A stretch of DNA of 64,000 bases from the NCBI GenBank assembly GCA_004194705.1, contig SADC01001380.1:62001-126000 (forward strand), written 5' to 3'. The translations under genes were made by a program, and so were the position numbers. Source of the DNA: Ditylenchus dipsaci. Lineage: Eukaryota > Nematoda > Chromadorea > Rhabditida > Anguinidae. Shown here piece by piece: positions 21,897-61,700 of this stretch. The number at the start of each line of letters is the position of its first letter. Position 1 is the stretch's first letter. The notes under the pieces were generated by a model. The model was not told the DNA's origin. It was given only the letters and a program-made list of their open reading frames with translations, and did no database searches.

Positions 21897-21949
21897 TCCA
21901 GTGCTCCACACCAGGTCTCTCCTTTTTATCTTTTAACTCACGTAGTTTA

Positions 21950-27004: not shown

Positions 27005-27249
27005 TAGTTTATTGGGTCCACCCCGAAAGGTCCCCGCTGAAAGATCCCCGGCCGAAAGGTCCCCGCCAAAGGTCCCCGCCGAAAGGTCCCCGGCCAAAAG
27101 GTCCCCGCCGAAAGGTCCCCGTCGAAATGTCCCCGGCCGAAAGGTCCCCAAATATCAATTTTCACAATATTTTGAGAAAAAAATGTGTCTGTGATCTCCA
27201 TTTCAAGTAGATCATTTGTAGCATCATCTTGTTTGTGCTTAGCTGCTGG

Positions 27250-27850
27250 GTAGGTCCCAAAACCTATTTTCTAGACTAATTCGGTCTTGCTGAAGATGGT
27301 TTGATAGTGGTAAAATGCCGTTTTATAGGGTACTTTCAAAGTTTTTGATAAAATTGAGCTTCGTTAAAATCAATGGCACTTCTTTGGTCACCCCCCCCCC
27401 CACCATACTCGCATTTTTTGAAAAGTGACCAAAAATCACCTCTCGAACCTATTTTTTCGCATAACACTCGGATTTTTCTAAAAGTGGCCCAAAATCGCCT
27501 TTCAAACCCATTTTTTCTGCATAACGCGATAAGAGAAGCATATCTTAACAGTTTCTGATCGATAGAAAATAAAATGTTGTAAAAAAAATTGCCAACCACT
27601 CCTTGAGGGTATATGGTCTTTTAGGGTATTTTAGGGTCATTTTCGAGTGATTTACCGCATTTTTCTTGCTGGAGCTGGGCAGAAAGACTTTCTGAATGCA
27701 TTTTAGATCAAGAGTTTTGCTCGGAATCATGTCTAAGGAAAGTGAGTGCGCGCATCTCTTATATAAAACGGCATTTTACCACTATCAAACCATCTTCAGC
27801 AAGCCCGAATTAGTCCAGAAAATAGGTTTTGAGACCCGAAAAGTAAAAAC
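27250..27850. repeat. Foldback element inside the array-ended element
   Basis: The stretch 'ctgaagatggtttgatagtgg' near 27290 and 'cctattttctagactaattc' near 27263 recur inverted near 27780-27830. The same segment appears, also as a foldback, at 16935-17130. A C-run lies at 27390. Exact ends were not fixed. Confidence 0.5.
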
Positions 27851-28027
27851 GTTTTGAATACAAGTGGACGACCACTTGGTTTTAATGGTATGATATGCAA
27901 TTTAGGCACTGCTGACTGAGTACTACCATTTAGATACCACTACCTAGAAACTACATTCTACTAGCACCCGCGTATCACTGCGCCATGAAGGGTGTATTAA
28001 GACAGATGAAGATAGATCAGGACTATT

Positions 28028-28268
28028 TAAAGGGCATGCCCGTGCGTTTTAAAAATTAAGGCGGGGGTCAGCAATTTTTTTTGAATCGTTCTATTTTTCA
28101 CTTGTTTTGCGTCAAATCTAATATTAATGACCCTATACTACTTTTAAAAACTAGGCAGAAAACTTAAAAAATCTGAATGCGTATGCATGTAAAACTTGAT
28201 CGAGAAAGAAAAAAAGTGCTGGTCCCCCCGACTTTTCTCCGTGTCGGGCACGGGCATGCCCCTTTAAG
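28028..28268. repeat. MITE with AAAGGGCATGCCCGTGC ends
   Basis: The ends AAAGGGCATGCCCGTGC and GCACGGGCATGCCCCTTT are inverted copies enclosing AT-rich DNA. A relative with GGGGCATGCTCG ends lies at 54192-54500. No clear target duplication. Confidence 0.55.
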
Positions 28269-28436
28269 TTAGTTCTGGAGCATTGACGAGGCATCGAATG
28301 TACAACACCATTAAGGGTATGTCTGGATCACTAAAGGTAGATAATAACTTGTGAGGATAGATCCGGACCATTGACAGTAGTTCAGGACCATTAGAGGTTG
28401 AAGTTGGGCGTAAACGCAACAAGTACCGAATATACT

Positions 28437-30707
28437 CACGGCCCCTCAAAATCTGCATTCTAGTGCATTAGCAAAATTTGGCGCCAAATCAAATTTTTTA
28501 AAAAACAGTTGTTTTTTAGTTTATTTTATCCAACACTTCTGGTTTTACTTTTTTCGTCGTACCTTATGTAAGTTTATTGTCAAAAAACTCACCACATTCA
28601 GCGCTGTCGAATAAGCTATCACTTGCCCGATAAACTTAACGAATTTCAAAACTAGAAGAGCTTTTCATGAATATTTCCGAAATTTCGGTTCGATTTGTTT
28701 GACTTGATTGATATTAGCGATGTTTTTTGACAATACATTGCTGAAGCAAGACTTATACCTGATAGAGGAGTGAATTTGCTGCATTTTGGTGCCAAGGACA
28801 TATACAAAAAATACAAATTTTGGGTGTTTTATACAAAAGTTAGATGGAAAACGCAAAAACCCCTAATTTTACTCGGAAAAATGGCAGTTGTTTGCTGTCG
28901 ATGGTCCCTCGTTTGCAAAACTCTTGGTTTTAAAAATTCTATTTTGGTTAAAAGATAGAACAGATTGTTAGCTTTCTTTTGGTATATAAAGATGCTGAAA
29001 AAATACAAAATTTGGAGTTTTCGATACAAAATAAATTCAAAATAATTTTAGATCTGAAGATGGTTTCCACCAGAAGAATGTGCGCTAAGCCAAATGGACT
29101 GTCTCTCTCCGAAATTCGTGCAGCCGCAGTCAAGAAAAGATGGGAAAAGGAAAGGCTGAAGATGCAGAAACTAGATGAAAGCAAAATTCAAGCTGCCGAA
29201 CGAGCAATGATGATGCGTAGAGTTTGTCTATGTAAGTAAATTTTGGTCATCGTAAGCTGTTTATTCTTGTTGAACCTGATATCTTGGAAGAGCTTTTGTT
29301 TAGTAAAGCAGGCTAATGAAAAGCTCAGGATAGCAGAAGAAGATAAGGCCACACAGAATCAGCTGCAACTGGAAAAAAAAGCAAGGCAATTCGCTCAGCC
29401 AAGCGCAAGCAAGCGATAGCTGCTAGATGGAGCAAGTCAATCAAGAAGAAGACCCGAAGAGGGGAAACAGTTAACAAGACAAGTAAATTTTCTATCTGTC
29501 AATTTTACTTTCGGACACATTCGTGTTTAGGAAGCGTCCCACCTCGTTGGAAGAGTGTCAGTGTCCAAGTCGATTCTACTAGCGTGGTCACTAGCCAATT
29601 GAACCGAGACAAAGAAGTCCTTCTCAATCGTCTGACTAAACCGAAAAAGCGGAAACCCGTACGTCACATCATTAGTTGTTGCTTTTACAGTGTGTGATTT
29701 ATTAAGGACCAGCGGAAGCCTTTGCAGTGCTTAGCAAGACGTGCTTCCTTGTCTAGAATTGATGAAGTGATCACTTTCTTTCGCGGCAAAGATGGCCAGC
29801 TTCCAAGCTTTGAGAAGTACCAGCAGTTATCAGCGAAAATTCGACTTCAAATGGGTATCGGTAATGTGAAGCAGGCCAACAGTTCTGATTCTTTTCTCAT
29901 GATCTCTATCTTCGATGATGATGATAGCTACGTCAATCTGTCAAGTCTATCGGCGGTGTTCAATCAGCTCAATTTCAGTAAGATCAATGTTGGTGAAGCG
30001 GTGAAAGAAGTGAAGTGGTAAAGTGAATTAATATTTTTCCTCCTGCTATACGTTTCCCGTTTGGGTATCTAACAGGAGACTTGAAATTTGTGGATACGGT
30101 TTACGGTCATCTTGGCTCAAGTGCAACTCATCCTTGTCCGATTTGCGAATGTCCTAAAATGTCCACAAAATGCAAGTTATGGCAAAAGGTTCCTTCCTCT
30201 CAGATGCTGAAATTGCAAAATTCAAAATGTGGTCTAAAGAATACTTTGAAACAATGACGGTACGTCTTACATTATTTATCTAGTTAGCGTATAAAAACTG
30301 TCTCTCTAGACTTGCTTTCCTCAAATGCCAGTCACTCCAAAGTGCCACATTCTTCGCCAACACGTTAGTGAGTTCATGGATAAGCATCGTTTCTGGGGTC
30401 TTCTGTCTGAGCAGTCAACAGAAGCCTTGCACTGCAAAGTTAATGGTGATGAAAGGAGGCTTTACTGCATGCGTGAAAGAATGAAGACACTCAAGAAAAT
30501 ATTGGAAGACTCTTTTGTGAGAAACATTTTCTTTGATGTGAAAGTTTTTGATTTGTAATTGTCCAGGTTTGCAATAAATTTTTCTAAATTGAAGCAAAGT
30601 ATCTGAAAGCTAAAAATTATTTAGAAAACGCAGAAAAAGTTTTTTTGAAATTCTTGGCGTTTTGTTTATTTTTAAATGTACTAGAATGCAGTTTTTGAGG
30701 GGCCGTG
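28437..30707 (+). mobile_element. CACTA-like DNA transposon with a transposase gene
   Basis: 2271 bp. The ends CACGGCCCCTCAAAATCTGC and its inverse (28 bp, one mismatch) are flanked by a 3-bp duplication, act (28434-28436, 30708-30710). CAC-starting ends and a 3-bp duplication are the CACTA/EnSpm signature, though the termini read CACGG rather than CACTA. It encodes a multi-exon transposase-like gene on the plus strand and is the apparent coding relative of the P1-carrying element at 2437-4588. Confidence 0.75.
29060..30558 (+). CDS. CACTA-like transposase (multi-exon, possibly broken)
   Basis: Exons include 29060-29231 (MVSTRRMCAKPNG...KKRWEKERL), about 29308-29480 (KRKQAIAARWSKSIKKK), 29531-29659, 29709-30020 (DEVITFFRGKDGQLPSF), 30075-30260 (GDLKFVDTVYGHLGSSATHP then CPIC) and 30310-30558 (MPVTPKCHILRQHVSEFMDK, FWGLLSEQSTEALH). 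The 'D.kf......G...s...PC..C' block and the 'K.H.L..H...F......SEQ.tEa.H' block resemble CACTA-type transposases of worms. An A8 run near 29372 shifts the frame. Intron borders are GT-AG. The family name is an inference from ends, duplication and these blocks. Confidence 0.6.
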
Positions 30708-31159
30708 ACTCACGGCCCGTGAGACTATCGCAAACCGATAGTGTTGCGAATCGATTTTCGCGAATCAAAAGTGTCGCTAACTGATAGTCGTTCAACAAAA
30801 TAATGAACAAAACCTTTTTCACGCAGAACAAAAGCAAAAAAAGGAACATTTTTTCTCAAAATATTGTGAAAATTGAAATTTTGGGGACCTTTCGGCCGGG
30901 AACCTATCGGCGGGGACCTTTCGGCGGGGACCTTTTGGCGGCGACCTTTCGGCCGGGGACCTTTCGGCCGGGGACCTTTCGGCGGGGACCTTTCGTCCTG
31001 ATCCCTAGTTTATTAGTTTTTTTTTAGAAACCTGATCAAAAACTATTACGTAAATCCAACAATTAGGAAATAAATTTGAATTGGTAGGGGACCACCAGAC
31101 CACTGTGAGCATGGTCTTTTCAAGAGGACAATGCTCACAATTCAATTGATTAAAAATTA

Positions 31160-31590
31160 ACGTACAGTTGAACCTCTGTATAACATAACTCAAGGGACCG
31201 CCGAAAACCTTATGTTATATAGAGGTTATGTTATACAAAGTAGCCATCCCGAAAAAAAAATCAACCATCGAAAACAATAGATTCGAAAGAAAATGGTAAT
31301 TTTGATTCCTTACTACCTTAATGTAAACAAATTTCTTATATAGACTGGATGAATCTGATTTTTAGAGAAATTAACTGATTTTTTGAGAAATTTAATAGAT
31401 TTATGTTATATAGAGGGGCGTTTATTCGGCTAGTGCCAGAAAAAAAATGTATGTTATAGGGTGTTTTATGTTATATAGAGGCAAAAGTTATGTTATATAG
31501 AGGTTCACTTTGGCTTTATTTTAATCAGACCAACCAAACTGATTTCTGAGTTATGTTATATAGAGTTATGTGATAAACAAGTTCGTCTGT
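31160..31590. repeat. pogo-like MITE rich in 'atgttatatagagg'
   Basis: Starts TACAGTTGAACCTCTGTATA at 31163. 'ttatgttatatagagg' recurs at about 31210, 31400, 31470, 31490 and 31553, and 'atgttata' again in the first intron of the next gene. The right end near 31505 (agaggttcact) is an imperfect inverse of the left. It is decayed and its limits are approximate. Confidence 0.5.
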
Positions 31591-31679
31591 ACTCCGTTTG
31601 AGCCGTTTGTTGTTAAAAGGTTTCCGTAAATTGGAGCGTGCATTATTGGAGGAGACGACTGTAGTAACAAAGATATGTA

Positions 31680-31708
31680 GTCCGGTTTTTAGTTTGCTAT
31701 TTCAAAAC
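31680..31708 (+). promoter_or_regulatory. Probable spliced-leader acceptor of the RRM gene
   Basis: 'ccggtttttag' lies about 20 bases before the ATG at 31709, with a short AT-rich leader ending AAAACATGG. It fits a trans-splice acceptor; a cis-spliced upstream exon is the alternative. Confidence 0.45.
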
Positions 31709-33369
31709 ATGGCTAGCGAAAAATCAGCGGATATCAATAGTGGACAATCTTCTAAAGAAAAATTGGCAGACATCAGTGGTGGACAATCTCCTAGCGAGAA
31801 GTCGGTGGATATCAGTGGTCTGCAATCTTCTAGCAATCAAATCTCTCCAAGTCATGAAAACGTCGTGCACATTGAAGATCCAAAGGTATTGATACTCCTA
31901 TTCATCATTTCTCAAAAATTTATGTTATAGGGAGTTTTATGTTATAAAGTCATTGCAATTATTTTTCAGGAGCAAATTGATTTGCTGCAAAAGTCCGAGC
32001 ACAGTCAAGAGAAGCCAGATCGTCACTCTAAGTTCGACGAGTCTTCCTCAAACTGCATTTGACGGAGCAAGAGCGCAAGGTCTTGGATGAGCGTCTAGGC
32101 TTTGTAGGCAGATTATTATTTTCTTAGTTTTCTGTCTTCTGTATTCAACATTTTAGGCTGTTACTTTGGTGGAATACTTCGGGAGTGAGGGAACTGCTCA
32201 AGCGTCTGAGTCATTGAAGAAAGCACTTGGACTAGGTCTAGCTGAAATTTCAAATGTTGCCACATCTCCTCGTAGTATCAAGTTTGACGATCAGAAGAAA
32301 GTCTATTCGCCCCCTGGCATGAAAATCAGCAGCCGCAGAGACCGTTGCCTTCAGCACCTCCTTATTTCATATACGTCTCCAACATCTCCTACAATGCCAG
32401 CAAGTCACAGATCAAAGATTACTTTGGCGGCGACAAGAATGTCAGTAAATTTAATTATTGTAAACTCGACCCTTCCGGAGTAATAAATTTTTTATTGACT
32501 AAAACACGAAAATAATGTCTTTTTTGAGCTTCTGAGGCAATTTTAGGTCGATACAGGGTGTTTGGAAACACTTTAAAAAAATTCGTTTGGGGAGGGGGTA
32601 TACTCCGGTAGCGCCGTAAACTCCTATGAACTTTCTGGATTAAGGTGAAGGACATCTACATGTACAAGTATGGAAATGGAAATTTCGCGGGAGATTGTTT
32701 TCTGGAGTTGGTTAACTGTCGCAAGGCCTTGGACCATGTGATCTCGTTGGATCACAGGGTAGCTCCACTTCTCTTGTTTTTCATTTAATGTTTTAACTTT
32801 TAGCAATTCATCAGTCGTCAGCTTACCGTTTCCGCCATATGTGATGAGAAAAGTCGCAGATTTTCGTTGAATGCCATGGCAGAGAACTACAAGTCAAGGT
32901 TTATACCGCAGACCAAGATGCAGCGACCAATGGGTGATAGAAGAAGTTCTCTGAGCTATCGTAGTTCTCAGGGCTCTCCGCGTCGTTCTCCGTTCACCAA
33001 GTCTCCAGGGTCTCCACGACGTTCATCTTTCAGCAACTCCCAGGATGTCAGACGTATGTGTTCTGTTCCTTTTATTCGTATATTTTGTGTCCATTCTTTG
33101 TTTAGGCATGCCTCCCAGACTCTCGAACGCAAACACCAACCGAAGCTTGTACTCGACTCCACCTGTTGCGAACCGCCAATTCTCCCGTTTCTACTCCAAC
33201 AACAGAGGCCATCATCGTCCAATTGACATTGTATGTGAATTTTCGATTATAAAACTATTAGGTCAAGTATGTTTTTAAGCCTTCGCCAAGTCCAGGTAAT
33301 CAATCCAAGAAGAACATGATTAATCAGTCAAATTCCAAGGAATATGGATCCAAACGCAGAACTTTTTGA
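31709..33369 (+). CDS. eIF4B/eIF4H-like RNA-binding protein
   Basis: Exons: 31709-31885, 31970-32103, 32157-32440, 32645-32758, 32804-33053, 33106-33230 and 33262-33369. With two single-base corrections this makes about 397 residues. The N-terminal part is Ser/Lys-rich with three 'DI.gGQSsseK' repeats. A central RRM follows: PYFIYVSNISYNASKSQIKDYF is the first strand and helix, and NFAGDCFLELVNCRKALDHV covers the RNP1 strand and second helix. The basic tail has SPRRSPF/SPGSPRRSSF repeats. In eIF4B/4H this RRM helps the eIF4A helicase unwind mRNA leaders. Assignment rests on the RRM style (PP-Y-yVsNisY) and the basic tail. One base seems missing near 32040-32050 and one near 32318. It could instead be another RRM/RS protein. 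Confidence 0.7.
32468..32615. repeat. hAT-like foldback family F, short intronic copy
   Basis: 148 bp with ends GACCCTTCCGGAGTA and its inverse (GGTATACTCCGGTAGCGCC), flanked by an exact 8-bp duplication, gtaaactc (32460-32467, 32616-32623). It sits in intron 3 of the RRM gene; without it the intron would be about 48 bp. Confidence 0.8.
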
Positions 33370-34265
33370 AAATTTGTTGTTATTTATGAAAAGCTGTTCT
33401 GTTATGCTGCTGCATCATTCCACAATCATGTTAAGCTGCATCACTTTTGTTCTATTTGTGGGGATATAAAGAATTTGTTTATTGGTCATTTTGTTAACGT
33501 CTTTACCTTTGAAATTTTTGGCTAGGTTGGGTTGTGCTCTTTCATTTTTTGATTAGGCGAGCAAAACTTGAGACGGTGTTGAAAGTGTATTTAGGCATTT
33601 AGGGGCATTTAGGGTTGTTAGCGGAATGGCGTGACGGGATGTATTAAAGTAGGTCCAAAGTCAAGACGAGAGATCCCGTGCGATTTGCGAGATACCGTAA
33701 TATATAGATTTTATAAAGTTTACTGTGATGAAGTTGTATGAATAAATGCAGCTTCGCTACTGTAGTATAGCTTTTAGCGCTGTGTTCAGGATGACCAACT
33801 CAATTTTGAAATTTCAGGGCATTTTTTCATGACCCCGGGCATTCGTTCTTATTTTTTGGCCAATTCCGGGCAGCGTTACATATTGTGCTCGGATTTTGGA
33901 AAAAATCCGAGAAATCGGGAAAGTTGATCACCCTGGCTGTATTACAGTTACCGTATCCTCTCTAATAAGAGTTTGCCTAGTAAAGTCTTTGTTGTATGAA
34001 ATGCAATGAAGCGGACGCTAATATGGAAATTTTATAAAATTTGTGTTCACCCAAATCGTTAAAATAAAATTATTTGACTCTTTATATTTGTGCACCTTTA
34101 AACCCTTCAGACTACTTGGTTTGTTCGCCTCTGCTCTCTTGTGACAGATGACCAATCCATGTGTCCATATTTTGAGAGCAGTCCAAGCTTTTCTTTCCAC
34201 TTCCCGCAATATGGATCGATTTTGGCGGTAGTGTAAACTTGTTTGTTAAACTATATGTTTCTGAT
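33370..34265. other. Intergenic, no gene seen
   Basis: 3' flank of the RRM gene (AATAAA near 33741) and 5' flank of the astacin gene. Near 33950 a single M1-type end (TACCGTATCCTCTCTAATA) occurs without a partner. 33590-33620 repeats 'gcatttaggg'. Confidence 0.4.
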
Positions 34266-34283
34266 ATGATATATATTCATCTA

Positions 34284-37200
34284 ATGCGATTTTTTACGCT
34301 TCTTATTTTATTACTTATTAGAGAAATGCAACTTACTGAATTACATATGAAAGATGGATCAAAGCCTAACTTATTGACTGAGGATGATATTCGCCTTTTT
34401 AATAACAAAATTAACTCTAGTATGCCCAAAGAGACAGACGGTATACATTATACAAACCCCTTGAATACAAACTTGTTGGATGGGGATGATGAATATGGCG
34501 TAGAAGAGTTGACTCAGCAATGGGATTCTGGGCAAGTGCCCTTTGTAATTGCTGATGATAAGACACTCAACGAGGAATTCTATGAGCAATTTAGTATTTG
34601 GCGATAGTTATTTCTTGATATTATTTATCGATTTGATTTAGGCGAAGCAGTGGAAGATTTTCACCAAAATACATGTGTGAAATTTCGACCAAAACTCGAG
34701 CTTGATCATTTCTTCATCAAAATTTTTAGCGGAGAAGGGTAAACTTTTTATTGAACTAGAATTTTATCATACAGAAGAGTCTGGATTAAAAACGTTAAAA
34801 AATCCAAATATACATAGAAATAAAAATTCTTTTCTGGTATGTCTTATTATACTCGTTACTAATCCGGGTAGCACAAATTCTGGTGTGCGTAAAATCTTTG
34901 TCTTCAACGATTATGGCTCTTTTCAAAACCCTTAACTTTTGATTTCTTTATTAAAAATTTCACAGTAGGTGTACTCTTGTAGCTGAGGCAGAGGGCTACA
35001 GAACGAGCTATTGATAAAGTGAATATTTTTTTAAAAATCTGGATGAAATAGGTCAGATTCGCACTCCGGAGGCAGTTGGATACTCTGGTAGATAATCTGG
35101 AGGCATGGAACCTAGAACGGTGCTCAGTACGGATACAATCGGTTTTATCCACATTCTTTAATCAATACCTAATTCGTTCTTAGCTCACTTTTGAGGCCTG
35201 CTCATTAGCTACAATATGACACCAAGGAGAAAATTTATGGACATTCCGGAGAGAGATGGCATGAAAAAGGCCGCATTCAGCGTAAGGGTAGCTTGAATCA
35301 TGGGGTTTTGATTAATATAGAACCTCCGAAAATTTTCTTGGATTTGTATTAAAAGAGCAAAAAACGTCATTTACTTCCTAGTTTTGGCCCTAAGGAGTGG
35401 CCTTCTATTAGAGACTGGCCTTCAATTAGAATAAATACGATATGTACTCATAGTATAATCCATAGATAGCATAATCCATGACTGAGGGTTTCTCGTTAAC
35501 TGGTTAATCTTCCAGATGTTGGTCTTATGTAGGAATGCAATCGGAGTTAATTTATGAAGGTCAAGAAGTTTCCTTAGGTCCAGAGTGTTGGCGCAAAGGA
35601 ATTATACTGCATGGTTTACTTTTAAATTTGTAACGTGGTGCGCAGAACAGATAAATTTATCCGAACAGATAAATTTATCTATCAGATAAAGTTCAAATAA
35701 TTTCTACCTGGCAGATAAAATTTATCTGCCAAACAAAATTTTATCTGACAGATAAAATTTTATCGGTCAGATAAAATTCGATTTTTATATGAGAATCATT
35801 ACAAAATTTAAAAAATGGGTTCCATACTTACAAACCTATAGAAACTTTAAAGAATAATAGTGACTGAAATATTTGATGGGTTTCGCCAGAAAGCCTGGCT
35901 GAAAATATGAGAACCCATTAACTATTTTAGTCACTATTATTCTTAAGTATTTGTATAGGTTTGCAAGCATGAAACCATTCTTTAATTTTGTAATGATTTT
36001 TATTAAAAAAATCGACCCTACCGGAGTATACCCCCCCCCCCCCCCAAATGAAATTTTTTTCAAAGTGTTTCCAATCACCCTATATCGACCTAAAATGGCC
36101 TCAGAAGTTCAAAAAAGACATTATTTTTGAGTTCTGGTTAATTAAAAACTGAGTTTTTGACATTTTGAAATTTCGACCATTTGCCTGTTTTGGCATGCTT
36201 TGGTCACTGCAGCTGGGCAAAAAGAGCCTCTAAATGCATTTTTGTTCAAGAGTCTTGCTTGGAATTATGTCTAAGGTAAGTGAGTGGGCGCATCTCTAAC
36301 CAACCAAGCCCCCTGCGCCGCCGAAGGGGCGCAGGGGGCTTGGTTGCTTGGGGTTGAGATGCGCACACCCACATACCTTAGACGCAAATCACTCGAAAGT
36401 AACTCTGGATGCATAAAAAATGTATGCATACCAGAGTCTCTTTATGCGGTAGGCCCCAGTCAACAAAACTATGTTCAACATCTTCCTTTTCACACAAAAT
36501 TAGTCTATTTTTGGTCCTTTCCCACCCTTATATGGCTCTAAACCCCTTTAAAAATGGTCAAAATAGGTATTTTTGAGTGGTCCCAAAACTCAATTTTTAT
36601 TGACTAGAACACAAAATAATGTCTTTTTTGAGCTTCTGAGGCGATTTTGGGTCGATATAGGGTGTTTGGAAACATTAAAAAAAAAATTTCATTTGGGGGA
36701 GGGGTATACTCCGGTAGCGCCAAAAAATCGAATTTTATCTGACCATAAAATTTTATCTGTCAGATGAAATTTTATCTTGCAGATGTATTCTATCTGTCAG
36801 ATGAAAATAATTTGAATTTTGTATGATAGATAAATTTATCTGTTCTGCGCACCACGATTTGTAAATAATTTTGTAATTTTTTTTCATTTGGCAGAATTGA
36901 TGCATGTCCTGGGCTTTTTTCATGAACATTCTCGGTTTGGTAAGAAAAATAAATTTTTCTACTTTCGAAATCAAAATATATTGTTAGGATTATAGACCGA
37001 GATCAGTTTATTGAGCTCAATGTGCAAAACATCCAAAAAAGTAAGAATATCATAAGAAATATGTTTTTTTCTTTACTATTAATCTGTGGCTAAACTTTTA
37101 TTAGAGTCGAACGTCTCATTTACGGCAAAAAGATCACATTGGCAAAAGTTTCATTAGCAAAACGATTGGCAAAAATTCGATTCGAAAACATTATGGCAAA

Positions 37201-41420: not shown

Positions 41421-41429
41421 AGTATTTAG

Positions 41430-42420: not shown

Positions 42421-42423
42421 GGT

Positions 42424-48524: not shown

Positions 48525-48930
48525 GAACCTGGACGGACACCCCTAAAAGTTCGTTCCTCAGCTGGGCTCGACACTTTTTCAGACCTACAGGGTGTCTCAA
48601 AAGTATTGGTATTTTTTGAAATTTTTGTGTACGTAGCCCATTGCCCGTCGATTTCCGATTTTTTTCGGAAATCTCCACAAAATATGATTTTGAGAACACA
48701 GCAAATTTATTTTCATTCATCTCATTTCAATTCAGAAGCAAATGGTTTCTAAAAATTTCAAAAAATTAGAGATTCAGACAAGTTTAGCCTGAATTTTTAA
48801 AAATACCCAATACTTTCGAGACACCCTGTATTATTGAATGCTTTTGTCAATTCTGTTCTGACAGTCTGGTCGCAAATACTGCTAGGATGCCGATAAAACT
48901 TTTACAAGTGAAAAGTTCTGGTTAAACAAA
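48525..48930. mobile_element. Left end of a pogo-like element with a mariner MITE inside
   Basis: Starts TACAGTCGAACCTGGACG and continues 'aagttcgttcctc...ctcgacactttttc', closely following 58628-58790 of the larger pogo-like element. A MITE at 48588-48828 interrupts it. No right end was found, so this is a truncated copy. Confidence 0.6.
48588..48828. repeat. mariner-type MITE
   Basis: 241 bp, ends CAGGGTGTCTCAAAAGTATT and its inverse, flanked by TA (48586-48587, 48829-48830). CAGGGTGT ends are common in mariner-like elements. Non-coding. Confidence 0.8.
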
Positions 48931-50097
48931 AAATAAATGCTACGACCTCGGGTAATTACCGTCTTGCAGCGACTACTCCCTCACATTGCTTATAATCTAG
49001 AAGTCGGCCTGTGGACGGCACCTACGGCAAAGTCAAGTTGACATCAAATAACCTTGACATTTTAAAGGGGTCTAAGGCAATTTTATTTCTATTTTGATTT
49101 ATTTAATTTTTTCTTTCAAAAACTTTTGAATTTTCGATTGCTTATAGATGGAGTTCAAGTTCAATTGCTTAACCATCCGCATTTGTTCTCTCGCTCTTTT
49201 TGCACTATTTTCAAAACTCATACCTTGCACCTTGCCCTACACCAACTTTACATGCCCTTTTCTCAGAAACTTTGTGTTCTTAGCTTAGATATTTTCACAC
49301 AATTTTGTGGCTGATATATCTTTCTGTAGATCGAATGGTAAAACAACTCAGCTATATTTCAATATTGACCATAATATGACACGTGTAAGTCGGAAATCTC
49401 CCTTTTTGGGAAAAATGTATGTTTTTAGAGCACATTGGGCGCAAGTTTGTCAATATTCAAATATAGATGAGGTGTTTGACCATTTAATTAACAGGAAATG
49501 TCTTAACTACAACAGGTGTGAAAAAACCAAGTTGAGACAGTGTGAGGTGTAAAAAAGTGTTTTTCTCATCTCAAAAATCCAAATGGCAAATGAAGAGGAG
49601 GAGACCGGAACTTTTGAACTGATTTTTATCTAGCCCGAGAATCTGGTTGCTAATTGAGGAATAATTCCTGTTCCCCAATTCTTCTTTGTATTTTACACTC
49701 ATAGATAGCCGGCTTAACAACACCAATAACCAGTAATTTGGGGGTGATGAACAGCCTAAGAGAAATGAGTCAAATACTACTTTTCACAGACAAGAACGCG
49801 TCAAGGCATGCATAATCTAGGTTTGTTTCCAGAAGAAGGGGAAACACCAAATAAAATATTAGTCGAACTACATTTTTATTTTCTTCGGCCACATTTGGTA
49901 AGTGCGTTGAGTTCGGTAGGTTGACATTTGGGTCAAGAGATGATTTCCGTCCCAAAAATAAAAATGTACCTAAAATAGCTTTATTTTCAATTTATTTTCA
50001 TTTCTCATTCAATATCGTTTTTGTGCACATTCAATTTGTTTTGCTGCCGTACTTGCCTGCCCATTGAGCTGCACGTTGCTTGCTCTTTAAATTTTGA
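48931..50097. other. Intergenic, no gene seen
   Basis: AT-rich sequence; no coding exon, RNA gene or paired element ends recognised. Confidence 0.4.
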
Positions 50098-50393
50098 GGC
50101 TAGGGGAAACTTGCCAAAAACGAAATTTGCCAAACGTATGTTTTGCCAAAACGAAATTTGCCAAATTGAAACTTGCCAAAACGAATTTTCCCAAAACGAA
50201 TTTTGCCATATCGAAATTTGCCAAACGTAGGTTTTGACTAAAACGAAATTTGCCTACCGTTAAATGGCTACAACGTATATATTTTCATTTAAATTCATTT
50301 GAATTTCGCTTTCGGCAAAACCTGCATTTGGCAGATTTCGATTTGGCAAATTTCGTTTTGCCGAATTTCGTTTTTGGCAAGTTTCCCCTAGCC
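50098..50393. mobile_element. Element with 'ttgccaaaacgaaat' array ends
   Basis: 296 bp made almost wholly of arrays. The ends GGCTAGGGGAAACTTGCCAA and its inverse are followed by about eight units of 'tttgccaaaacgaaa' on the left and five inverted units on the right. An exact duplication aattttga (8 bp; 9 if the terminal G is counted) flanks it (50090-50097, 50394-50401). Minimal, non-coding. Confidence 0.8.
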
Positions 50394-50401
50394 AATTTTG
50401 A

Positions 50402-51559: not shown

Positions 51560-51645
51560 AAATCATTTATCTTGTCCGATCTGGCATTGTCAAGCAACGT
51601 TGGGCTTGACTAGTTGACGGTTCAAAATTTAAAAAAAATTTAAAA
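51560..51645. repeat. Solo terminal repeat of the P1-carrying element family
   Basis: 'tgtccgatctggcattgtca', 'agcaacgttgggcttgacta' and 'gttcaaaatt' repeat, in inverse order, features of 2545-2600 and 4395-4425 in the element at 2437-4588. It is a fragment only. Confidence 0.5.
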
Positions 51646-51653
51646 TAACTGTA

Positions 51654-51805
51654 CAGTCGAACCTGGACACTACACCACCCTAATATAACACCACCCGAAA
51701 ATGGACCGATTTGGTCAGCTTTGACTAAAATTAAGCCAAGTGAACCCTCGATGCAACACCACCCTAGGGTCGGTCCTTGGGTGGTGTTGTATCCAGGTTC
51801 GACTG
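51654..51805. repeat. pogo-like MITE
   Basis: 152 bp, ends CAGTCGAACCTGGACACTAC and its inverse, flanked by TA (51652-51653, 51806-51807). Interior 'acaccaccc' occurs in both orientations. Confidence 0.75.
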
Positions 51806-52166
51806 TAATCGCAACAAAAACAATTTAAACAATATTTTCTGAGTAATTTATCTGCTCCCATGAGTTCGGAAAGTTGAAATTGCAAGGCCATTTAAAACTA
51901 CTTTCCACGGTGGAAATGATAAATGTGGTTAACTCCTATATTAAATTTGACAAAAAAAAGCAAGGCTAATATGCGTTTAGTAAACCCTATCGATCACTTA
52001 GGATAGTGGAAACAATAAATGTTTATCAGAAGCTGAACCAACTACATAGTGACTGCCAACTACAAAGTGCTTCAGCATAGCTTGTAATTAGTTTTTCGCG
52101 CGTTCGGTCAAGTAGTCAACTAATTGAATGAAACCCACTGAAGGTTTAAGGTCCCAAATGTAGTTA

Positions 52167-52417
52167 CCGTATTTCTTCTAATTGCCGCACATGTTCGCTT
52201 ATTTTTCAATCACCCGAAAATCGGAAATTTCTGAATTCGATCTCGAGATTCTCGGGCGCTCAATCAAGATCTGAAAAGTGGAATCGGTAGAGCTCGTGGG
52301 AGTTAAGAAAATGCATCAAACAGCTGATTAACATATTTACTCTGCTCCGAGGTATAAGTCTTCAAAGTTGGGGGTGTGCGGTTATTAGAGGCTGTGAGGC
52401 AATTAGAAGAAATGCGG
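52167..52417. repeat. MITE family M1, copy
   Basis: 251 bp, CCGTATTTCTTCTAATTGCC end and its inverse, TA at 52165-52166 and 52418-52419. The interior 'agctcgtgggagttaagaaa' phrase is shared with other copies. It lies just downstream of the SLC12 gene. Confidence 0.85.
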
Positions 52418-52794
52418 TATGTGATGTGGGGAAAAAGTAATATAGGTTATGATTTAAAAAAAAGAAGAAAATTAAAGATTAAAAATTAGAGCGACATGTT
52501 TTTATAGGGCGACATACTCTGAGTCATATTGCTCAACTTTGCTTGACTATATGGTCGTGCGAAACAAAACTTTAGACTAACGACATGAATAATTTAAAAA
52601 AATTAGAGTATGAGGAGGGAGGAAACTCAAGAAGTTGTCATTTTAAGGTTTCTTAGAGAATTGCAACAACTTCTGTGTCTAGTATCTTGAAAACTAAAAG
52701 TTTCAAAAAAGTGTTTTATTTTTATCTTTTTTTCAGCAAAAAAAAGTTGAGAATTGGGTTGCCTAATGTAGGCTAGACTAGATTAGCAGTCAGC

Positions 52795-55700
52795 CTAGGA
52801 GTAGAATGTGAGCACTGAAGTTTGGTTGCCACGCACCATCAGGACTGGAGGAAGATCACGAGTCCTAAAATATAACTCACTTGTAAAAGAAAAATAAAAC
52901 ATCTGCAGATTACATTAGGTCAAGCCAGGCCATGTACAAACAATTGCTGACGCACTCTCGAGGGACTGGCAGGGTGCTGAAAAATGTAGCAAATTTTCTG
53001 AACAAAGAAAACAAAGAAATTTTAAGTTTTTAACTCTTACTTCTTCCTAAGTAAGAGCAACGGAGAATATTCACATAAAAAATTTCACGGTAAAGACTTG
53101 CAGGCATAGTGACCGCGCCGTCCTTCGCCGTCCTAATTTTTCAATCGCAGTCCTGGGTTTTAACAATATTTTTTATTATGCACAGCATTTTTTATTTTAC
53201 AACATATAATCAGTTTTTATTTTATACGTAATTTTCGGGCGACCGTCCAAGTTTTCTTTCATTTTTATTTAAAAAAAATGGGCCGTCCTGATTTTACACA
53301 AAAATTTTCAAAGAAGTCGGTTAAATTAGGACGGCCCCATTTTTTTGAAATAAAAATAAAAGAAAACTTGGACGGTCGCCCGAAAACGAAGTATAAAAAT
53401 AAAAACTGATCATATGTCGTAAAATAAAAAAAATTGTCCATAATGAAAAATATGGTTAAAATGCAGGACGGCGATGAAAAAAATTAGGACGGCGCGGTCA
53501 CTATGCTTGCAAGCAGTGGTACCCATATAGTGGTACCCCTTTTGAAAAATATCGCAACTTAGGTTAGTGGGTTTTCCGATCTAAAATAGGTATAATGAAC
53601 ATATTTCAGTCCATTCTAGTATACACTGCGTCAATCCTAAGCTTAAACTAAAAAATTACAGGAGCATCAAGGCGAAAAATTGGGGCCCATTGCTCAAAAA
53701 AGCCATGCTCAAAGCTGAAATGCAACTTACACAACAATAAGACTAGCATCGTAGGAGTGTTGAATGAGCAACTGGCGAGTGAGCAGTTGTCTATATGTCC
53801 TTTTCTTGTTGATTAGCAGTTCTTCATCAGTCACTAAAGAGGGGTCACTGCTCCCGTTCTTGGTCCTCCACGGCTTGATCAACTTGTTGAAAGCGTACAT
53901 TCTGCAAATTAGATTTTAAAAATGTTTGGTCAACAAATTCGGATTGACTGACATGTCTGGGTGGAGCTTTTGCTTGAGCACCTCTATCACTTTTACACAA
54001 CTGAATTCGATCCTGAACTTGCTGAGCAGGGCAATCATGCTTTGCTCGTCTACTTCAGCATTACTGCCACAAAGGGTCAGAACCCGAAGTTCAGCGCCCT
54101 GCAATGGGGTAAACGATGTATTTTGTATGGTCAAATATTAGAGCATTGATAAAGAACATTTGGGAGCTATGCAGGGGGACACAAAAACAGTCATACTTGA
54201 AGGGGCATGCTCGCCGCCGATGAGAATATTTTAAAAGGCGGGTACTAGGTTAATTCAAACGATAATTATTTTAAAATAAATTCAAGTTAATTACCCTGCG
54301 GGGAATAAGTAATCAAAAACACTGATATCATCTGGTAGCATTGGTGGTCTAGTGTGATAGATGTGGCGGAAGGCGAAAATCGTCGGTACGATTCCCACTG
54401 GATGTACGATTTTTCTTCGACTTTTCCAAAATTTCGTCAAATAAATTCTCGTTTGAATTTCGCTGGTACCCGCCTTTTAAAAAATTCCCATCGACGACGA
54501 GCATGCCCCTTTAACTATTTTTTAACTTTTGCAGTTTCTTATTAGTTTTTAACTCATACTTATTAAATTTTCACATTTGTTTAGCCTCAAATACAAGTTA
54601 TCTGATAGCTAACAAACTCTACTAAATAATTGTTGGAATGTGGAAATTTAGGTTTATGAATAGAGAAACCTTGTGAAAAAGCTACTTTATTAGATGATCT
54701 AAAAGCTGATATCTAAAACTGTATGATGTTATGACATTTTAGAAAATCGATGTTGAAAAAGTGGAAAAGTTAAATAAAACGGCAAAAAGAGATATAATCG
54801 TGTGTCACTTTGCAGTTTGACTGCCCTAAAACTGGCTTATCACAGGTAAATAAAACACTTGAAATGAAGAAATAAACTGTTTGGTGTTTTTGATATTATG
54901 TGATCAAAAATTTCTCGTCATTAATAACTGTGAGAGAATTTCATTGATAAAATGTTAAAATTCCAACCTCCAGATAAGACTTGGGCAGTCTTAGCAAATG
55001 TGGAATCAGCAGTGTAAGGCCACCGTCATCATATAACCACCAAACGTCAATTCTGCCGTTCCTTCTCCTTTTGCTGCTAAATGCATTCATGCGTTTAGCC
55101 AAGGCTTCTGTCTCCGCAAATTCCCTAAAAAAAATATCTACTGAAATATAGATTGAAAAAGGTTTTACTTTTCGAGTTTCATCTTGATTTTGGTGGACAT
55201 GCCAAGTGTTTCACTCCTAGATCGCCTCAACTCTCGTTGTTGTGTGTCGGTGTATGCTGTGTGAATAGTGGGTGAAGTGGCTGTAATATTGCAACTGTCA
55301 AGCACTCCATCCAAGTCTTCGTCCTCATCTTCTTCATCATCACAATCAAATATGTCGAAGATATGACGGTCCGAGAAGAATTTGGCTTCTGCAAATCATG
55401 GTTGTAAATAAATTAGCTATCCCCATTGATTCGAAAGGTTTTTAATATGTAATAGGGCTCCGAAATGTCTTTATTTATAAGATTTGTCCTTATTTTACCG
55501 AAATGCGGATGTGGTGCGAATTTTTGAAATAAACTAAATATTCGTCACTTTTTTTAAAAAGCGCTATTTTATAGAATGCTTATTGATGTTTGATCACCAA
55601 AAATAAATATTTCGACGTAAAAGCTGAAAAATTCTGAAGATTTGGGGTCCCGAATAGAGTGAAAACCTCTAAATAAAGTACAAAAAGAGGTTATATTTAA

Positions 55701-58700
55701 AAAAATATATAAAAAATCTATTTGAAGCAATCTTGGTTTACAAGTTTCTAGAACTTCGAGAGTCCGGATTTTCATTCGGCTAAAATTCAGACTTTAAATT
55801 ATATTAGGTTGTTGAGGAACAGGATACTTAGCATCTTGATTGGGTTTCTTCAAGACCTCAAGTATTATACTGAATACTCTAAGAGCGCGAGTTGACTGCG
55901 TCCCTATTTTCAAGGTCAAAGTTGAAATAAAGCCGAACTAACGAAACATTTCTCGTAAAATAAGTGGTAACCCTACTTTTGTGGTCAAAGCTTCTAGCAG
56001 TAGCATGTGGATTGAACTTTGGGATGACTTTGATGGTGCGCATGCTCAGATTAATGGTTCTTCGTTTGGTGTTGGTGCGTCTAATGGCATGTTTGTCTGT
56101 AAACCAACTATTTGAGTTCAAAAAATATACACACCAATCCCACCATTGTCCATTTCTTCCAAATCAGTGGCTGATTGTACAGACTTTTTCAAGCCATCTA
56201 TATCTTTGATGTCATGTTCTAGTAGAGCATCCGACAAGTCAAATCCATCTTTTCCATTTCGCAGAATACATACTCCATAGCTTTTCTCAAAAGCATCTCT
56301 AAAAAGATAATTGTTGAATAAATTCTAAAAAATCTAAAAACCTAATTATTCCCACATAGTTGTCGATTTCCTGCAAATTTTCCCAGCTGATTTGAGACCA
56401 GTTGAGCTTAAATCCCATCATAATCACGTTAGGACGAAGTTTTCCCAGACCTTAAAATAGTCAATTTAATCATTAATAAACTCGGAAAATCCAACATCTA
56501 ATTTTTTTCGGCTCAAATTGTTTTACCTCTCCAAATCATTCATTTATCCCCCCAAATCATAAAAATGAGTATTTCTCGGTGTTCTTATGTCGTAAAATTT
56601 TTTTCTATTGATCATCATGTAGCCCTGAATCTCTTGTTACTGATAAGCTATCAACTGATCCCTTGTTGATGAAATTTTTTTGAGAAATACCCGTTTTTAT
56701 GAAACAACTCTTCTTTCAAAAAAGGTGTATTTCTAAAAGGGTTATATTTAAAATTGGCCATAGAATTGTGAAAAATGGCCATAGAATATTTAATTTTGGC
56801 CATAGATTTTTTGGCCATAGAATATTGAAAAATGGCCATAGATTTTGAATTTTGGCCATAGATTTTTGAAAATTGGCCATAGATTTTTGAAAAATGGCCA
56901 TAGATTTCTGAAAATTGGCCATAGATCTGTGTTGGCCATAGAATATTGAAAAATGGCCATAGAATATTGAAAAATGGCCATAGATTTTTGAATTTTGGCC
57001 ATAGATTTTTTTGGCCATAGAATACTGAAAAATGGCCATAGATCTCTAAATTTTAACCATACTCGCTCGAAATCATGTTTCAACCACTTTTTAAGATGCT
57101 CTTGAACCTGAAACATACTGAAAAGATGTTTTAAGGGTGTCGATGACACTTTTCCGAGAAAAAAAATTCTGTAATTTTTCCGACCATTGGTCGTTCAGGG
57201 CGGTCAAAAAAATTTCTCGGAAAATTGTCATCGACACCCTTAAAACATCTTTTCAGTATGTTTCAGGTTCAAGAGCATCTTAAAAAGTGGTTGAAACATG
57301 ATTTCGAGCGAGTATGGCTAAAATTCAGAAATCTATGGCTAAAATTCAGAAATCTATGGCCATTTTTCAATATTCTATGGCCATTTTTCAATATTCTATG
57401 GCCATTTTTCACAATTCTATGGCCAAAATTAAATACCACCCTTTCTAAAATTTTTTAACAACAAGGGATCAGTTGGCAGCTTATGAGAAACTAGAAATTC
57501 AGGGCTACATGATGATCAAAAGAAAAAAAATTTACGACATAAAAGCACCGAGGAATACTCATTTTTACGATTTGGGCGGATACCGTATTTTCTCTACTAA
57601 TTACCCCTTCTCTATTAATAACCCCCATAGGCACCCTATATCTCAACTCAAAAAAATTATTTGCAAATCTGTTTTTTGCGCTGTCTTAATCACCACGAAC
57701 TTAGTTGATTCCACTTTTTAGATTTCGGTTGAACACCCAAAATCTCAAAACAAAATAATTTTTTTTCGATTTTTCAGGGGTTGAAAAATAATTACCCCGG
57801 GGTAATTAATAGAGAAAATACGATAAATGAATGATTTGGAGGGGTAAAAGAATAATTTGCAGGGGGGGGGGGAAGTACTTACAACCATTTTTTTCCAGCA
57901 CTTTTTTAAAATTTTTGTCAAAAATGATGAAACCTGTGCAAATAAAACTTATTGCAGCACCTAATTTGGTAAATGAGCACCGAATTTCCTATTTTCACTT
58001 ATCCAATACTAAGAAACAAGGTGGATTGGCGCCTTACAGGCGCCGGATAAAAACGTCAAAATTTTGCGACTACAAAAACAATTAGGCTTTTCCGTTATCG
58101 GGACCTCTTATAAGAGCCTCTCAGCTATCTATGTTTCAAAAATCTACCTCGCAACCTACCTAGCCTACCTGACCATTCACCTACCTTACCTGGATACCTA
58201 CCTTATCTGGCCACCTACCTACCCTATAAGACTACATACCGTATTTTCTCTAATTAGTCCAACGGTGGGTTCATTTTTCAATCACCCGAAAATCAGAAAA
58301 ATTTGAATTAGATTTCTAGTTTTTCTGTTGAAAATTATAAATCTGAAAAGCGATATCGGTAGAGCTCGCGGTAACTAAGAAAACGCGATAAACAGCTTGG
58401 CAAAATATTCACCCTGTTCCGAGATACAGACCCTCAAAGTCGAGGGGTGGGTTTATTAGAGGGGGTGGGCTAATTAGAGGAAATACGGTACTCTAACTGG
58501 ACACCAAACACAAAGAAAATTAAAAATTGAATGATAATTTTTAATTTCTTTTCGAGATAAAAAACATTTAAATTTCCGTGTTTTATGCGATCCTGATTTT
58601 CTGGATCCTAACCTTAAAATCGTTATACAGTCGACTCTCGATATAAGGACACTCAGGGGACCGGCAAAAGTTCGTTCCTGCCTTGGGTCCGACACTTTTT

Positions 58701-61700
58701 TTAGCCCGATTTTCGAAAATTTTCACCGGTTTTGTTTTGACAGTTTGGTTCCAAATATCGCAAGGATTCCGATTTTGCCGATCGTTTTTCAGAGATCCAG
58801 ATTTTTTTCCTATAAAAAGCAAAAACTCGATTTAAACACAGGCTTTTTCAAAAATCCCTGTCCTTATATCGAGTTTTTGCTTTTTAGAAGAAAAAAATCT
58901 GGATTTCTAAAAAACGATCGGCAAAATCGGAATCCTTGCCATATTTGGAACCAGACTGACAAAACCGGTGAAAATTTTCGAAAATCGGGCTAAAAAAAGG
59001 GATGGTATTTAATTTTGGCCATAAACTCGACGTGGCCATAAAATACTGAATTTTGGCCATAAACTTTTGAATTTTGGCCATAAACTTTTGAATTCTGGCC
59101 ATAAACTTCTGAATTTTGACTATAAACTCGAATGAGGCCATGAAACGCTGAATTTCGGCCATAAATTATTGGGTATTGGCCATAAACTCGGGTTGGCTCT
59201 AGGACAATTGAATTTCGTCACCAGTTTCGCTGCGTTATATAACTGTGTTATTACACTTTTCATCCTTGCAAATTTGCATGTCTTCCGCATCAATATTAGA
59301 ATTCTGTGTGTTTAGAATTATCAAGCTCAACGAATGACAATGAAGTTCACCGTGATGTCGGCTCTCCTGATGCCTTTTTCAGCGGTTGCTTGCGCTTTGG
59401 CACCTGGAGTCGCTATTCTAGGTGAGTGTCTTTGATTGACTGGTGGTTCATGTTCTGACTAGGTCTATTTTTCAGTTGGCTAACAACATGTGCTCTACGC
59501 TCCGATTGCATCAACTCCAGTGCTTTTCAAAGTAAGTTTATTCAATTGCAGGCAATTGTTCCAACTATCTCAATGGCCGTGGTTATGATCGTGCGTTCAG
59601 ACTTGGCCTTCCGTTGATCAGTGAGTGCTTAAGTGACATTAACCCATTCTGTATTAGAGTGTGCTCCTTCGAAAAAGTCTTCAGCCGAATTGACCTCCAG
59701 CAGAAGCAGCAGCAATGAAAATGGAGTATTGTTTCCCTATCACAATTGTATTTCGATGTGATCTAATGATCTGAATAAAATTGTTTTTAGTACATCAGGT
59801 TTTTTGAGGATACCGTGTTTGTTGTTTCTTTCCGTGGATAATATTATTATTTTGTAAGGTCAACATGAGTGGCGAGCTCTCTATTGGCCTATTAGTAAAT
59901 AATTGAAAAAATTGGACGGTTGCTATCTGCTATCCCTGCGCTTTGGTTGGTCATCTATCGTACCTTTCTTTGTTATAAATTTTCGGCCGGCTGTCTTGGT
60001 CTTTTTTGCACTGCACTAGCTGTATCCCAACCCTGGCTGAATGACGTGGTTAGTGTGTCTGCGGGAGTGAATTTATTAGAGTCTTTTTCCTGGAGTGGTG
60101 AATAATAGGTGAATTTCACAGAAGAGGGACCCAGGCTGTGATTCGGGGAAGTTCGATAAAAAGTGCGTTTTAAAAAATGCTTAAAGGCCTGACCTCTTCC
60201 TACTCGGTGGTCCCCCGCCAATTCAAAAATTTTCCCTCGATCATTGGACTTCTGTACGGATTTTTCCGCCACGTTTCTAACAAAACTAGGCCTGAAATCA
60301 AATTTTAGGCTTAGTTTTGTTAGAAACCTAGCGGAAAAATCCGTACAGAAGTCCAATGATCAAGGGAAAATTTTTGAATTGGCGGGGACCACCGAGTAGG
60401 AAGAGGTCAGGCCCTTTAAGGAAAGTTTCTGGGTCTTTTTTCAAATAAAAAAATTTCTGAAAGGTTTGCAGGGCCGAAAAACCAACCCACGATTGTTGGG
60501 CATCCTCCAGATGGCTCTTGAGATCTACTTACTTGAATTAGTGATATTTACCTGAGAAACAAGAAAGGAGGTGTAAAGAAAGGTTTGTAAAGAACAAAAC
60601 CTGGTTTCAACTTATCAACACCTGAGAAACTGAGGTAGTCTAAACTGAGGTACTCGACCACCTCCGAGTGTATACCCAAGGTAGACCTATCCAAGTACTA
60701 ATTAGATATTGAGATTATGAATAGTCAAAACATCAATTTGATCATAACCAACCATTTCAGTACAAAATTTTAAGTTTAATACTATAGTTCGTGCGACATT
60801 TGGAGGTGATAATACTTTGGTGGGCCGATTGACTTGTAGACCAATTGTAGACCAATGACGTAGAGCCAACTTGAGTTCAATATTTTATGGCCAAAATCTG
60901 ATAATTTACGGCCAAAATTCGGGATATGAAGGCCAAATTTAAGTTTATGGCCAGAATTCAAAAGTTTATGGCCAAAATTCAATAATTTATGGCCAAAATT
61001 CAGTATTTTATGGCCACGTCGAGTTTATGGCCAAAATTAAATATTTTATGGCCAATTTTCAGTATTTTATGGCCAGTTTTAAATATTATCCTGAAAAAAG
61101 TGTCTGACCCGAGGCGGGGACGAACTTCTGTCCTTATATCGAGTGTCGACTGTATTTCAAAGCGGAATCATCATTGTGATTCCTGTGATTTCTTTTTTTA
61201 ACGATAGCCAAAATTCTGGAGTACAACGTGACAGAGAGTTTTCGGGGTTCAGCTTTAAAAACGCCAGCCCAAATAAAAATAATGAAAAACGTGACGGAGA
61301 AACATATTACAAACACTATATAGAGATACAGTTGCGGAAAAAAGTTACGGTCCGATCAAAATTTTTTTGATTTTTTATGCAAATTGCTGTGTACACGTAT
61401 ATTTTTCGAATAAAATTGAAAATCGAAATAGACAGTCCTGTGCAGAATTTCATGCACTACAAAACTGTCATTGCTGTTTAAAATATTTTAAACAAATTAT
61501 GTTGAGCATCGCCACTCATTCAAAAGTATCCGAAAAACAAGGTACGAAAAAAGTTACGGTCCAATAACATTTTGATCTTTTTTACATGCTTGTCTTCAAT
61601 TGTGAAAGATTACAGCATACATTTTTTCAGAGCCCTGAATTTTAGCTGCAATTTAGAAGGTCAAGCTTTTGCTTTAAATTGTTCTGAGAAAACTTATGAC

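What the first reader, a model, noticed from the sequence alone, without database searches (positions are those of the whole stretch)
27014..61091. Terminal inverted repeats built from tandem short-motif arrays in several unrelated families
Elements at 13974, 16062, 18622, 27014, 35634, 50098, 56739 and 59000 each end in arrays of a different 11-20 bp unit in inverted orientation. Four of these insertions have exact 8- or 9-bp target duplications and a fifth has one mismatch. Each family has its own motif, yet the architecture is the same. Arrays could act as multiple transposase-binding sites that expand and contract, letting ends diverge fast. I know of no named class defined by this feature, though some MULEs and foldback elements have subterminal repeats.
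Basis: partly seen in the sequence, partly recalled or inferred. Interest (0 to 1): 0.88.

Follow-up and report, generated by a model that had tools for sequence, protein, structure and literature searches.

The report
Mutator/foldback transposons with repeat-array ends
[quoted passage not shown] the arrangement is real and common among the elements sampled, but the kind was already described.

Summary
In detail: eight inverted-array elements are present. Five have exact 8-9 bp target duplications, a sixth has one mismatch, and two have none of that length. "No named class" does not hold. Three array families (13974, 27014, 50098) flank MULE (Mutator-like) transposases elsewhere in the genome; 16051 and 56739/59000 have similar GG ends. 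This is the Mutator/Foldback kind described as Tm1 in root-knot nematodes and in the Muta families of Aedes. 35634 (8-bp duplication, other termini) and 18622 (TWA flanks, perhaps Harbinger-like) belong elsewhere.

Of the 20 best of 115 MULE loci, 16 are bracketed by inverted arrays, against 0 of 20 DUF1280 control loci. In 9 of 13 array families, unit variation is concentrated at a few positions. Array length changes while interiors stay 99.9% identical. Array likeness follows transposase likeness, but not its FLYWCH finger specifically. Outside the array lies a GGG cap whose positions 4-8 mostly differ between the two ends; A-type and T-type caps are shared by families with different arrays. 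I read arrays as transposase-loading sites and caps as cleavage sites; binding is untested. The host is very probably Ditylenchus dipsaci.

The parts
13974..15833 (-). MULE deletion derivative; caps GGGCGGCGG / GGCTCTAGG; arrays (AAATTGAACC core) about 13984-14050 and 15737-15826; 9-bp duplication 13965-13973 and 15834-15842
   Evidence: same ends as the MULE-bearing copy L073; weak FLYWCH remnant on the minus strand at 15190-15375 (E=0.0093, below the Pfam cut-off)
16051..17727 (.). Array element, unit GACAATTCGCCTCC(G)G; left cap GGGACACGG; right cap missing, no duplication found
   Evidence: a copy on C1326 has GGGTCCGCG at both ends and no duplication
18622..20498 (.). GC-rich repeat-ended element (CTCCGACTCCGCC), terminus AGCTACGTTCACA, flanked by TAA 18619-18621 and 20499-20501; Harbinger-like by flanks only
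27014..31005 (.). Array MULE family; caps GGGTCCACCC / GGGATCAGG; arrays 27015-27149 and 30883-30995 (unit CGAAAGGTCCCCGC); 9-bp duplication 27005-27013 and 31006-31014; carries a nested DUF1280-type element
   Evidence: copy L059 with the same ends holds a MULE and a FLYWCH domain
35634..36856 (.). Element without the GG cap of the MULE group, arrays (unit AATTTTATCTGACAGATAA), terminus CGTGGTGCGCAG, 8-bp duplication 35626-35633 and 36857-36864
50098..50393 (.). Short array element (unit GAAATTTGCCAAAAC), identical caps GGCTAGGGG, 8-bp duplication 50090-50097 and 50394-50401
   Evidence: the same array and cap lie about 1.5 kb from a MULE domain on C1197, where only the right end was read
56739..57441 (.). 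Array element (core TGGCCATAGA), caps GGGTTATATTTA / GGGTGGTATTTA, 9-bp duplication 56730-56738 and 57442-57450
59000..61091 (.). Relative of 56739 (core TGGCCATA), caps GGATGGTATTTA / GGATAATATTTA, 9-bp duplication with one mismatch 58991-58999 and 61092-61100

Best explanation
13974, 27014 and 50098 belong to Mutator-like (MULE) DNA transposon families of the Mutator/Foldback kind; 16051, 56739 and 59000 probably do too. The window copies look non-autonomous. Shown: an end has, from outside, a GG(G) terminus flush with an 8-9 bp target duplication; in most families a block at positions 4-8 (up to 10) that differs between the two ends; then a family-specific array of 14-21 bp units in inverted orientation. 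In the transposase-bearing loci examined a FLYWCH zinc finger and a MULE DDE domain lie between such arrays. Inferred: the arrays are clusters of transposase-binding sites that raise loading and specificity and grow or shrink by unequal exchange or slippage; the caps are the cleavage and strand-transfer sites, one of each type used per transposition in most families; recombination between the inverted arrays can invert the interior relative to the caps. 35634 and 18622 reached a similar look from other superfamilies.
For: MULE domain search: 115 matches, 150 of 504 candidates scored. Of the 20 best loci, 16 have an inverted array pair, all bracketing the domain; 20 have at least one short-unit array. 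Controls: of 20 DUF1280 loci 1 has an inverted pair, both arrays on one side of the match, and 13 have at least one array; of 20 window tiles 3 have a pair, these being reported elements. Duplications flush with GG caps, exact over 8 or 9 bp, in 14 of 18 testable transposase loci; mispaired ends of these 18: 0 of 306 exact over 8 bp and 1 of 306 over 9 bp. FLYWCH above the Pfam cut-off in L029, L039, L034, L048 and L059. Same ends with MULE for 27014 (L059), 13974 (L073) and 50098 (C1197). Unit variation uneven along the unit in 9 of 13 families. Array likeness against MULE-domain identity, Mantel r=0.362, p=0.001, 14 families; reversed-unit control r=-0.152. Caps: positions 1-3 never differ between ends, positions 4-8 differ in 58-92% of 12 families, positions 11-20 in at most 17%.
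Against: Array likeness does not track the FLYWCH finger once the DDE domain is accounted for (partial r=-0.23, 11 families), so the correlation may be shared descent alone. Short arrays are common in this genome (13 of 20 control loci), so only the inverted bracketing pair is telling. Loci are not independent (several share a family; two control loci overlap). Units within an array descend from one another, so the core/spacer p-values are too small; 50098 and L048 show no contrast. No MULE partner was found for 16051 or 56739/59000. Unlike caps are not universal: L033 and the window's 50098 have identical caps and a duplication. Four of 18 testable loci lack a duplication, and 5 of 12 copies of the 27014 family.
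Confidence: 0.83

Rival explanations
1. The arrays are neutral by-products: replication slippage and fold-back repair amplify short units in long TIRs, and the binding site is only the cap or a single unit.
For: Array number varies strongly between near-identical copies; no FLYWCH-specific co-variation; 2 of 13 families show no uneven variation and 2 are borderline; short arrays are frequent in this genome (13 of 20 control loci).
Against: Inverted pairs bracket 16 of 20 MULE domains sampled; near-invariant cores of 9-11 bp in three families (13974, 56739, L034) and shorter ones in others; unit likeness follows transposase likeness only in inward orientation. In Galileo (P superfamily) the repeats do contain transposase-binding sites (PMC3688188, passages read).
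Confidence: 0.25
2. Ordinary satellites into which unrelated elements inserted.
For: Some arrays stand alone in the window (8073-8178, 10000-10118); L032 has an array of at least 27.9 units.
Against: Duplications flush with caps outside the arrays in many copies; inverted pairs bracket 16 of 20 MULE domains against 0 of 20 DUF1280 matches.
Confidence: 0.02
3. Each family is a separate unnamed class with convergent architecture.
For: 35634 (8-bp duplication, CGTGGTGCGC terminus) and 18622 (TWA flanks) differ from the MULE-like group.
Against: Three window array families flank MULE transposases, and 16051, 56739 and 59000 have similar GG caps.
Confidence: 0.1

Closest known systems
Tm1 Mutator/Foldback family, Meloidogyne (PMC3169594; passages read)
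   Same: 8-10 bp, mostly 9-bp duplications; composite TIRs with a variable number of 13-15 bp tandem repeats; asymmetric terminal motifs, one type per end, outside the array; Phantom-like MULE transposase; MITE-like derivatives; one element with the same motif at both ends lacked a duplication.
   Different: One family there; here 14 array families with a MULE domain in one genome, and two end types shared between families. Unit sequences differ. The word FLYWCH occurs in that paper but its passages on it were not read.
Muta MULE families, Aedes aegypti (PMC5225508; passages read)
   Same: 8-9 bp duplications, FLYWCH transposase in 13 of 14 families, 9-15 bp subterminal tandem repeats in 10 of 12 long-TIR families; Muta1 has a terminal motif plus nine 12-bp units with 3-4 bp spacers, is called a type-2 Foldback, and moves in yeast.
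   Different: No difference between the two terminal motifs was mentioned in the passages read.
Galileo, P superfamily (PMC3688188; passages read)
   Same: Long internally repetitive TIRs; the transposase THAP domain binds several sites in the repeats.
   Different: Different transposase superfamily and DNA-binding domain.
Tetris, Drosophila virilis (PMC4079207; passages read)
   Same: Foldback with tandem repeats in TIRs, 8-10 bp duplications, placed in Mutator; its repeats fed a satellite.
   Different: Units about 220 bp; no transposase found.

Membership tests
MULE (Mutator superfamily) | MULE DDE transposase between matching ends | tested here: met
   Met for 27014 (L059) and 13974 (L073); for 50098 the domain and the right end on C1197 were read, the left end not. 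Not found for 16051, 56739, 59000.
MULE (Mutator superfamily) | 8-11 bp target duplication | tested here: met
   13974, 27014, 50098, 56739 exact; 59000 one mismatch; 16051 none, right end truncated.
Mutator/Foldback, Tm1 kind | Composite TIR of variable-number short tandem units | tested here: met
Mutator/Foldback, Tm1 kind | Different terminal motifs at the two ends | tested here: met
   11 of 12 transposase families differ within positions 4-10; L033 does not, nor does the window's 50098, which is not among the 12. 56739 family: 9 of 9 fetched copies have one of each. Copies with like caps: L054, L068 (27014 family) and the C1326 copy of the 16051 family, all without duplication.
Mutator/Foldback, Tm1 kind | DNA-binding finger with the MULE domain (FLYWCH, as in Muta1) | tested here: met
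   FLYWCH above cut-off in L029, L039, L034, L048, L059; L073 below cut-off, E=0.004. Other loci were not run.
Mutator/Foldback, Tm1 kind | Transposase phylogenetically within Phantom | not tested
   No reference tree was built; the Phantom paper is not held.
PIF/Harbinger (for 18622) | 3-bp TWA target duplication (recalled) | tested here: inconclusive
   TAA on both sides in the window; TAA or TTA next to the terminus in 12 of 12 fetched ends, one of them (L102) with a degenerate terminus. These bases could belong to the terminus itself, and both ends of one copy were seen only in the window.
PIF/Harbinger (for 18622) | Harbinger transposase with these ends | not tested
   No autonomous copy sought.
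hAT (for 35634) | 8-bp duplication with preference nTnnnnAn (recalled) | tested here: inconclusive
   Length met; the preference holds in 3 of 10 distinct duplications, window included.

The most novel reading that the evidence does not exclude
A two-part end code shared by many MULE families of one genome: a pair of unlike caps (A-type GGGA.., T-type GGGT..) joined to a fast-changing, family-specific array. The caps would impose pairing of unlike ends at synapsis; the arrays would act as an address that keeps families from mobilising one another. Inverted-array recombination would flip the interior relative to the caps without harm, which would explain why 4 of the 14 loci with one cap of each type (3 of 10 families) are reversed relative to the transposase gene.
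Probability: 0.3. Interest if true: 0.62.

Novelty: new member of a known kind. Interest (0 to 1): 0.4.

Why it matters
The genome offers 14 related array families with a MULE transposase, many sharing end caps, a natural series for asking how a transposase and its array change together, and why the two ends of a cut-and-paste element should differ. It also shows that what one window presents as unrelated oddities is mostly one superfamily with long, variable ends.

Tried and rejected
DUF1280 (PF06918) protein inside 27014: it lies in a nested element with its own 34-bp inverted ends, so not taken as the mover of the array ends; 20 of its loci served as control, one of them the window's own and two overlapping. 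The FLYWCH finger as the specific partner of the array was tested and not supported. Neighbourhoods of array matches and MULE matches were compared by eye from the printed coordinates, of which only about 40 candidates per family are scored. C364 (16051 family, 2 kb) and C922 (56739 family, 4.3 kb) were dropped because the MULE match appears to lie outside the array-ended element. By my arithmetic a chance neighbour within 3 kb has odds of roughly 0.1 per family, so the 13974 and 50098 pairings were checked by sequence. No MULE match within 3 kb was seen for 35634, 18622 or 56739 (against 12). The first duplication finder hid some duplications; redone. It requires GG caps, so 35634 and L057 rest. 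A regular-expression unit count undercounted; TRF counts are used. The automatic pair test failed for L033, L037, L042 and L046: L033 has a visible inverted pair, L037 one cut by the locus edge, L042 and L046 an array on one side only. Untestable for duplications: L032, L037, L042, L046. Of 20 regions fetched for the 27014 family, 11 with arrays in both orientations were tested; L060 and L067, first left out, were tested and have none, and the left array of L067 is of another unit.

Full report
Where. The window lies at C1345:62001-126000 of a 227-Mb, 1359-contig genome. A transposase fragment of one locus found 32 proteins, five of them named as Ditylenchus dipsaci; two of these match L044 and L034 at 100% over stretches of 98 and 74 residues. 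Host Ditylenchus dipsaci, a plant-parasitic nematode, is therefore a strong inference, not a label given by a tool.

Observation. TRF and inverted-repeat searches confirm the eight elements; at 18622 TRF gives an array at the right end only. Duplications are exact for 13974, 27014, 35634, 50098 and 56739, one mismatch for 59000, none of 8-9 bp for 16051 and 18622. Mispaired ends gave an exact 9-bp match in 1 of 1056 pairings. Other copies: 27014 family, 7 of 12 looked at have an 8-9 bp duplication, window included; 35634 family, 9 of 10 exact 8-bp, two of the ten sharing flanks; 56739 family, 7 of 9 exact 9-bp.

What they are. A MULE domain search (PF10551) gave 115 matches, 150 of 504 candidates scored. 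Of the 20 best loci, 16 pass an automatic test for an inverted array pair, and the pair brackets the domain in each; all 20 have at least one array within the 1.5 kb held on each side. The same test on 20 DUF1280 loci passed 1, with both arrays on one side of the match; 13 of those 20 have at least one array, so a single array is not telling. On 20 window tiles it passed 3, these being reported elements. Duplications flush with GG caps, exact over 8 or 9 bp: 14 of 18 testable transposase loci (L035, L036, L039 and L041 have none); among mispaired ends of these 18, 0 of 306 exact over 8 bp and 1 of 306 over 9 bp. The 27014 ends recur on L059 around a FLYWCH finger and a MULE domain; the 13974 ends on L073 around a MULE domain and a weak FLYWCH match; the 50098 array and cap near a MULE domain on C1197, where only the right end was read. 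The 16051 left cap GGGACACGG equals that of several MULE loci. 56739 and 59000 have MULE-like caps and duplications but no transposase partner was found. 18622 is flanked by TAA or TTA, in the window on both sides, which by recalled knowledge points to PIF/Harbinger, unless these bases are part of the terminus; 35634 has 8-bp duplications and the terminus CGTGGTGCGCAG and stays unplaced. No intact transposase was sought; several loci show stops or frame breaks.

Anatomy of the ends. From outside: GGG, then a block that differs between the two ends, then the symmetric array. Over 12 transposase families the two ends differ at positions 1-3 in none, at positions 4-8 in 58-92%, at position 9 in 50%, at position 10 in 25%, and at positions 11-20 in at most 17%. 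In 17 transposase loci the upstream end is A-type and the downstream end T-type in 10 (7 families), the reverse in 4 (3 families), and 3 are otherwise: L033 with identical caps, L045, and L073 with GGCT/GGGC. In the 56739 family all 9 fetched copies have one GGGTGG-type and one GGGTTA-type end. Copies with like caps and no duplication: L054 and L068 of the 27014 family and the C1326 copy of the 16051 family, GGGTCCGCG at both ends; Tm1's authors reported one such element. L033 and the window's 50098 have like caps and a duplication, so the rule is not general.

Arrays. Wrap-around alignment of units to a family unit shows uneven variation along the unit in 9 of 13 families (p=0.0002, the smallest possible), borderline in L029 (0.047) and 16051 (0.055), absent in 50098 (0.81) and L048 (0.64). 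The first nine positions of AAATTGAACC never vary among about 25 units of the 13974 family; TGGCCATAGA is nearly invariant in about 19 units of 56739; in other families the invariant runs are mostly shorter. Units descend from one another, so p-values are too small. Array length changes fast: L034 and L035 share 99.87% of 2225 interior columns but have 8.9 and 12.9 upstream units; L032, 99.2% identical to L034, has at least 27.9, running off the locus. L045 and L047, whose MULE domains are 96% identical, have different units.

Arrays and transposases. Across 14 families, unit likeness correlates with MULE-domain identity (Mantel r=0.362, p=0.0010; Spearman 0.259, p=0.0135), and not when units are compared in the opposite orientation (r=-0.152). 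In 11 families with a readable FLYWCH finger, unit likeness correlates weakly with the finger (r=0.198, p=0.11) and not once the DDE domain is accounted for (partial r=-0.23). The data fit common descent of arrays and transposases; they do not show that the finger reads the array.

Mechanism. Shown: MULE-type insertion with 8-9 bp duplication, cap plus array anatomy, array turnover, correlated arrays and transposases. Inferred: arrays as multiple binding sites, caps as cleavage sites, unlike-end pairing, inversion of the interior by recombination between arrays. Precedents: the Galileo transposase binds sites in its tandem repeats (PMC3688188), and Muta1 with nine units per end moves in yeast (PMC5225508); passages of both were read.

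Known or new. Tm1 in Meloidogyne has the same anatomy, including unlike end motifs (PMC3169594, passages read), and 10 of 12 long-TIR MULE families of Aedes have short subterminal tandem repeats (PMC5225508, passages read). A 2024 survey of plant-parasitic nematode transposons that lists D. dipsaci names MULE-MuDR among widespread superfamilies; a word search of it found neither tandem nor TIR (PMC11118728). My literature searches listed no paper on these families in Ditylenchus; the library holds open-licence papers only, and the Phantom paper is not held. Filed as new members of a known kind. What may be new is the sharing of two end types across many families with different arrays.

Noticed in passing
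28434-30708: Nested element inside 27014 with 34-bp inverted ends (TCACGGCCCCTCAAAA...) and a broken DUF1280 (PF06918) protein; 123 matches to a part of that protein in the genome. Possible transposase family without a named function.
   Followed up: partly
8073-8178 and 10000-10118: Solitary short-unit arrays (GAGACTATTGTGGCCC; TTCGTGGTACTATCGA) with no inverted partner among the pairs listed; may be broken element ends or very short elements.
   Followed up: no
L032, L035 (C1343, about 18 kb apart) and L034 (C48): L035 has the left flank of L034 on one side and, on the other, the 9-mer that adjoins L032, as an exchange or inversion between two array elements would leave; it would also explain the missing duplication of L035.
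   Followed up: partly
16882-17128 and 27253-27883: The same inverted-repeat piece lies inside two different array elements (16051 and 27014), probably a nested small element.
   Followed up: partly
21195-24213 and 17670-18266: Reverse-transcriptase-like reading frames, LINE-type by my own reading (no domain search was run); the second starts inside the right array of 16051, which may be why that end is incomplete.
   Followed up: no
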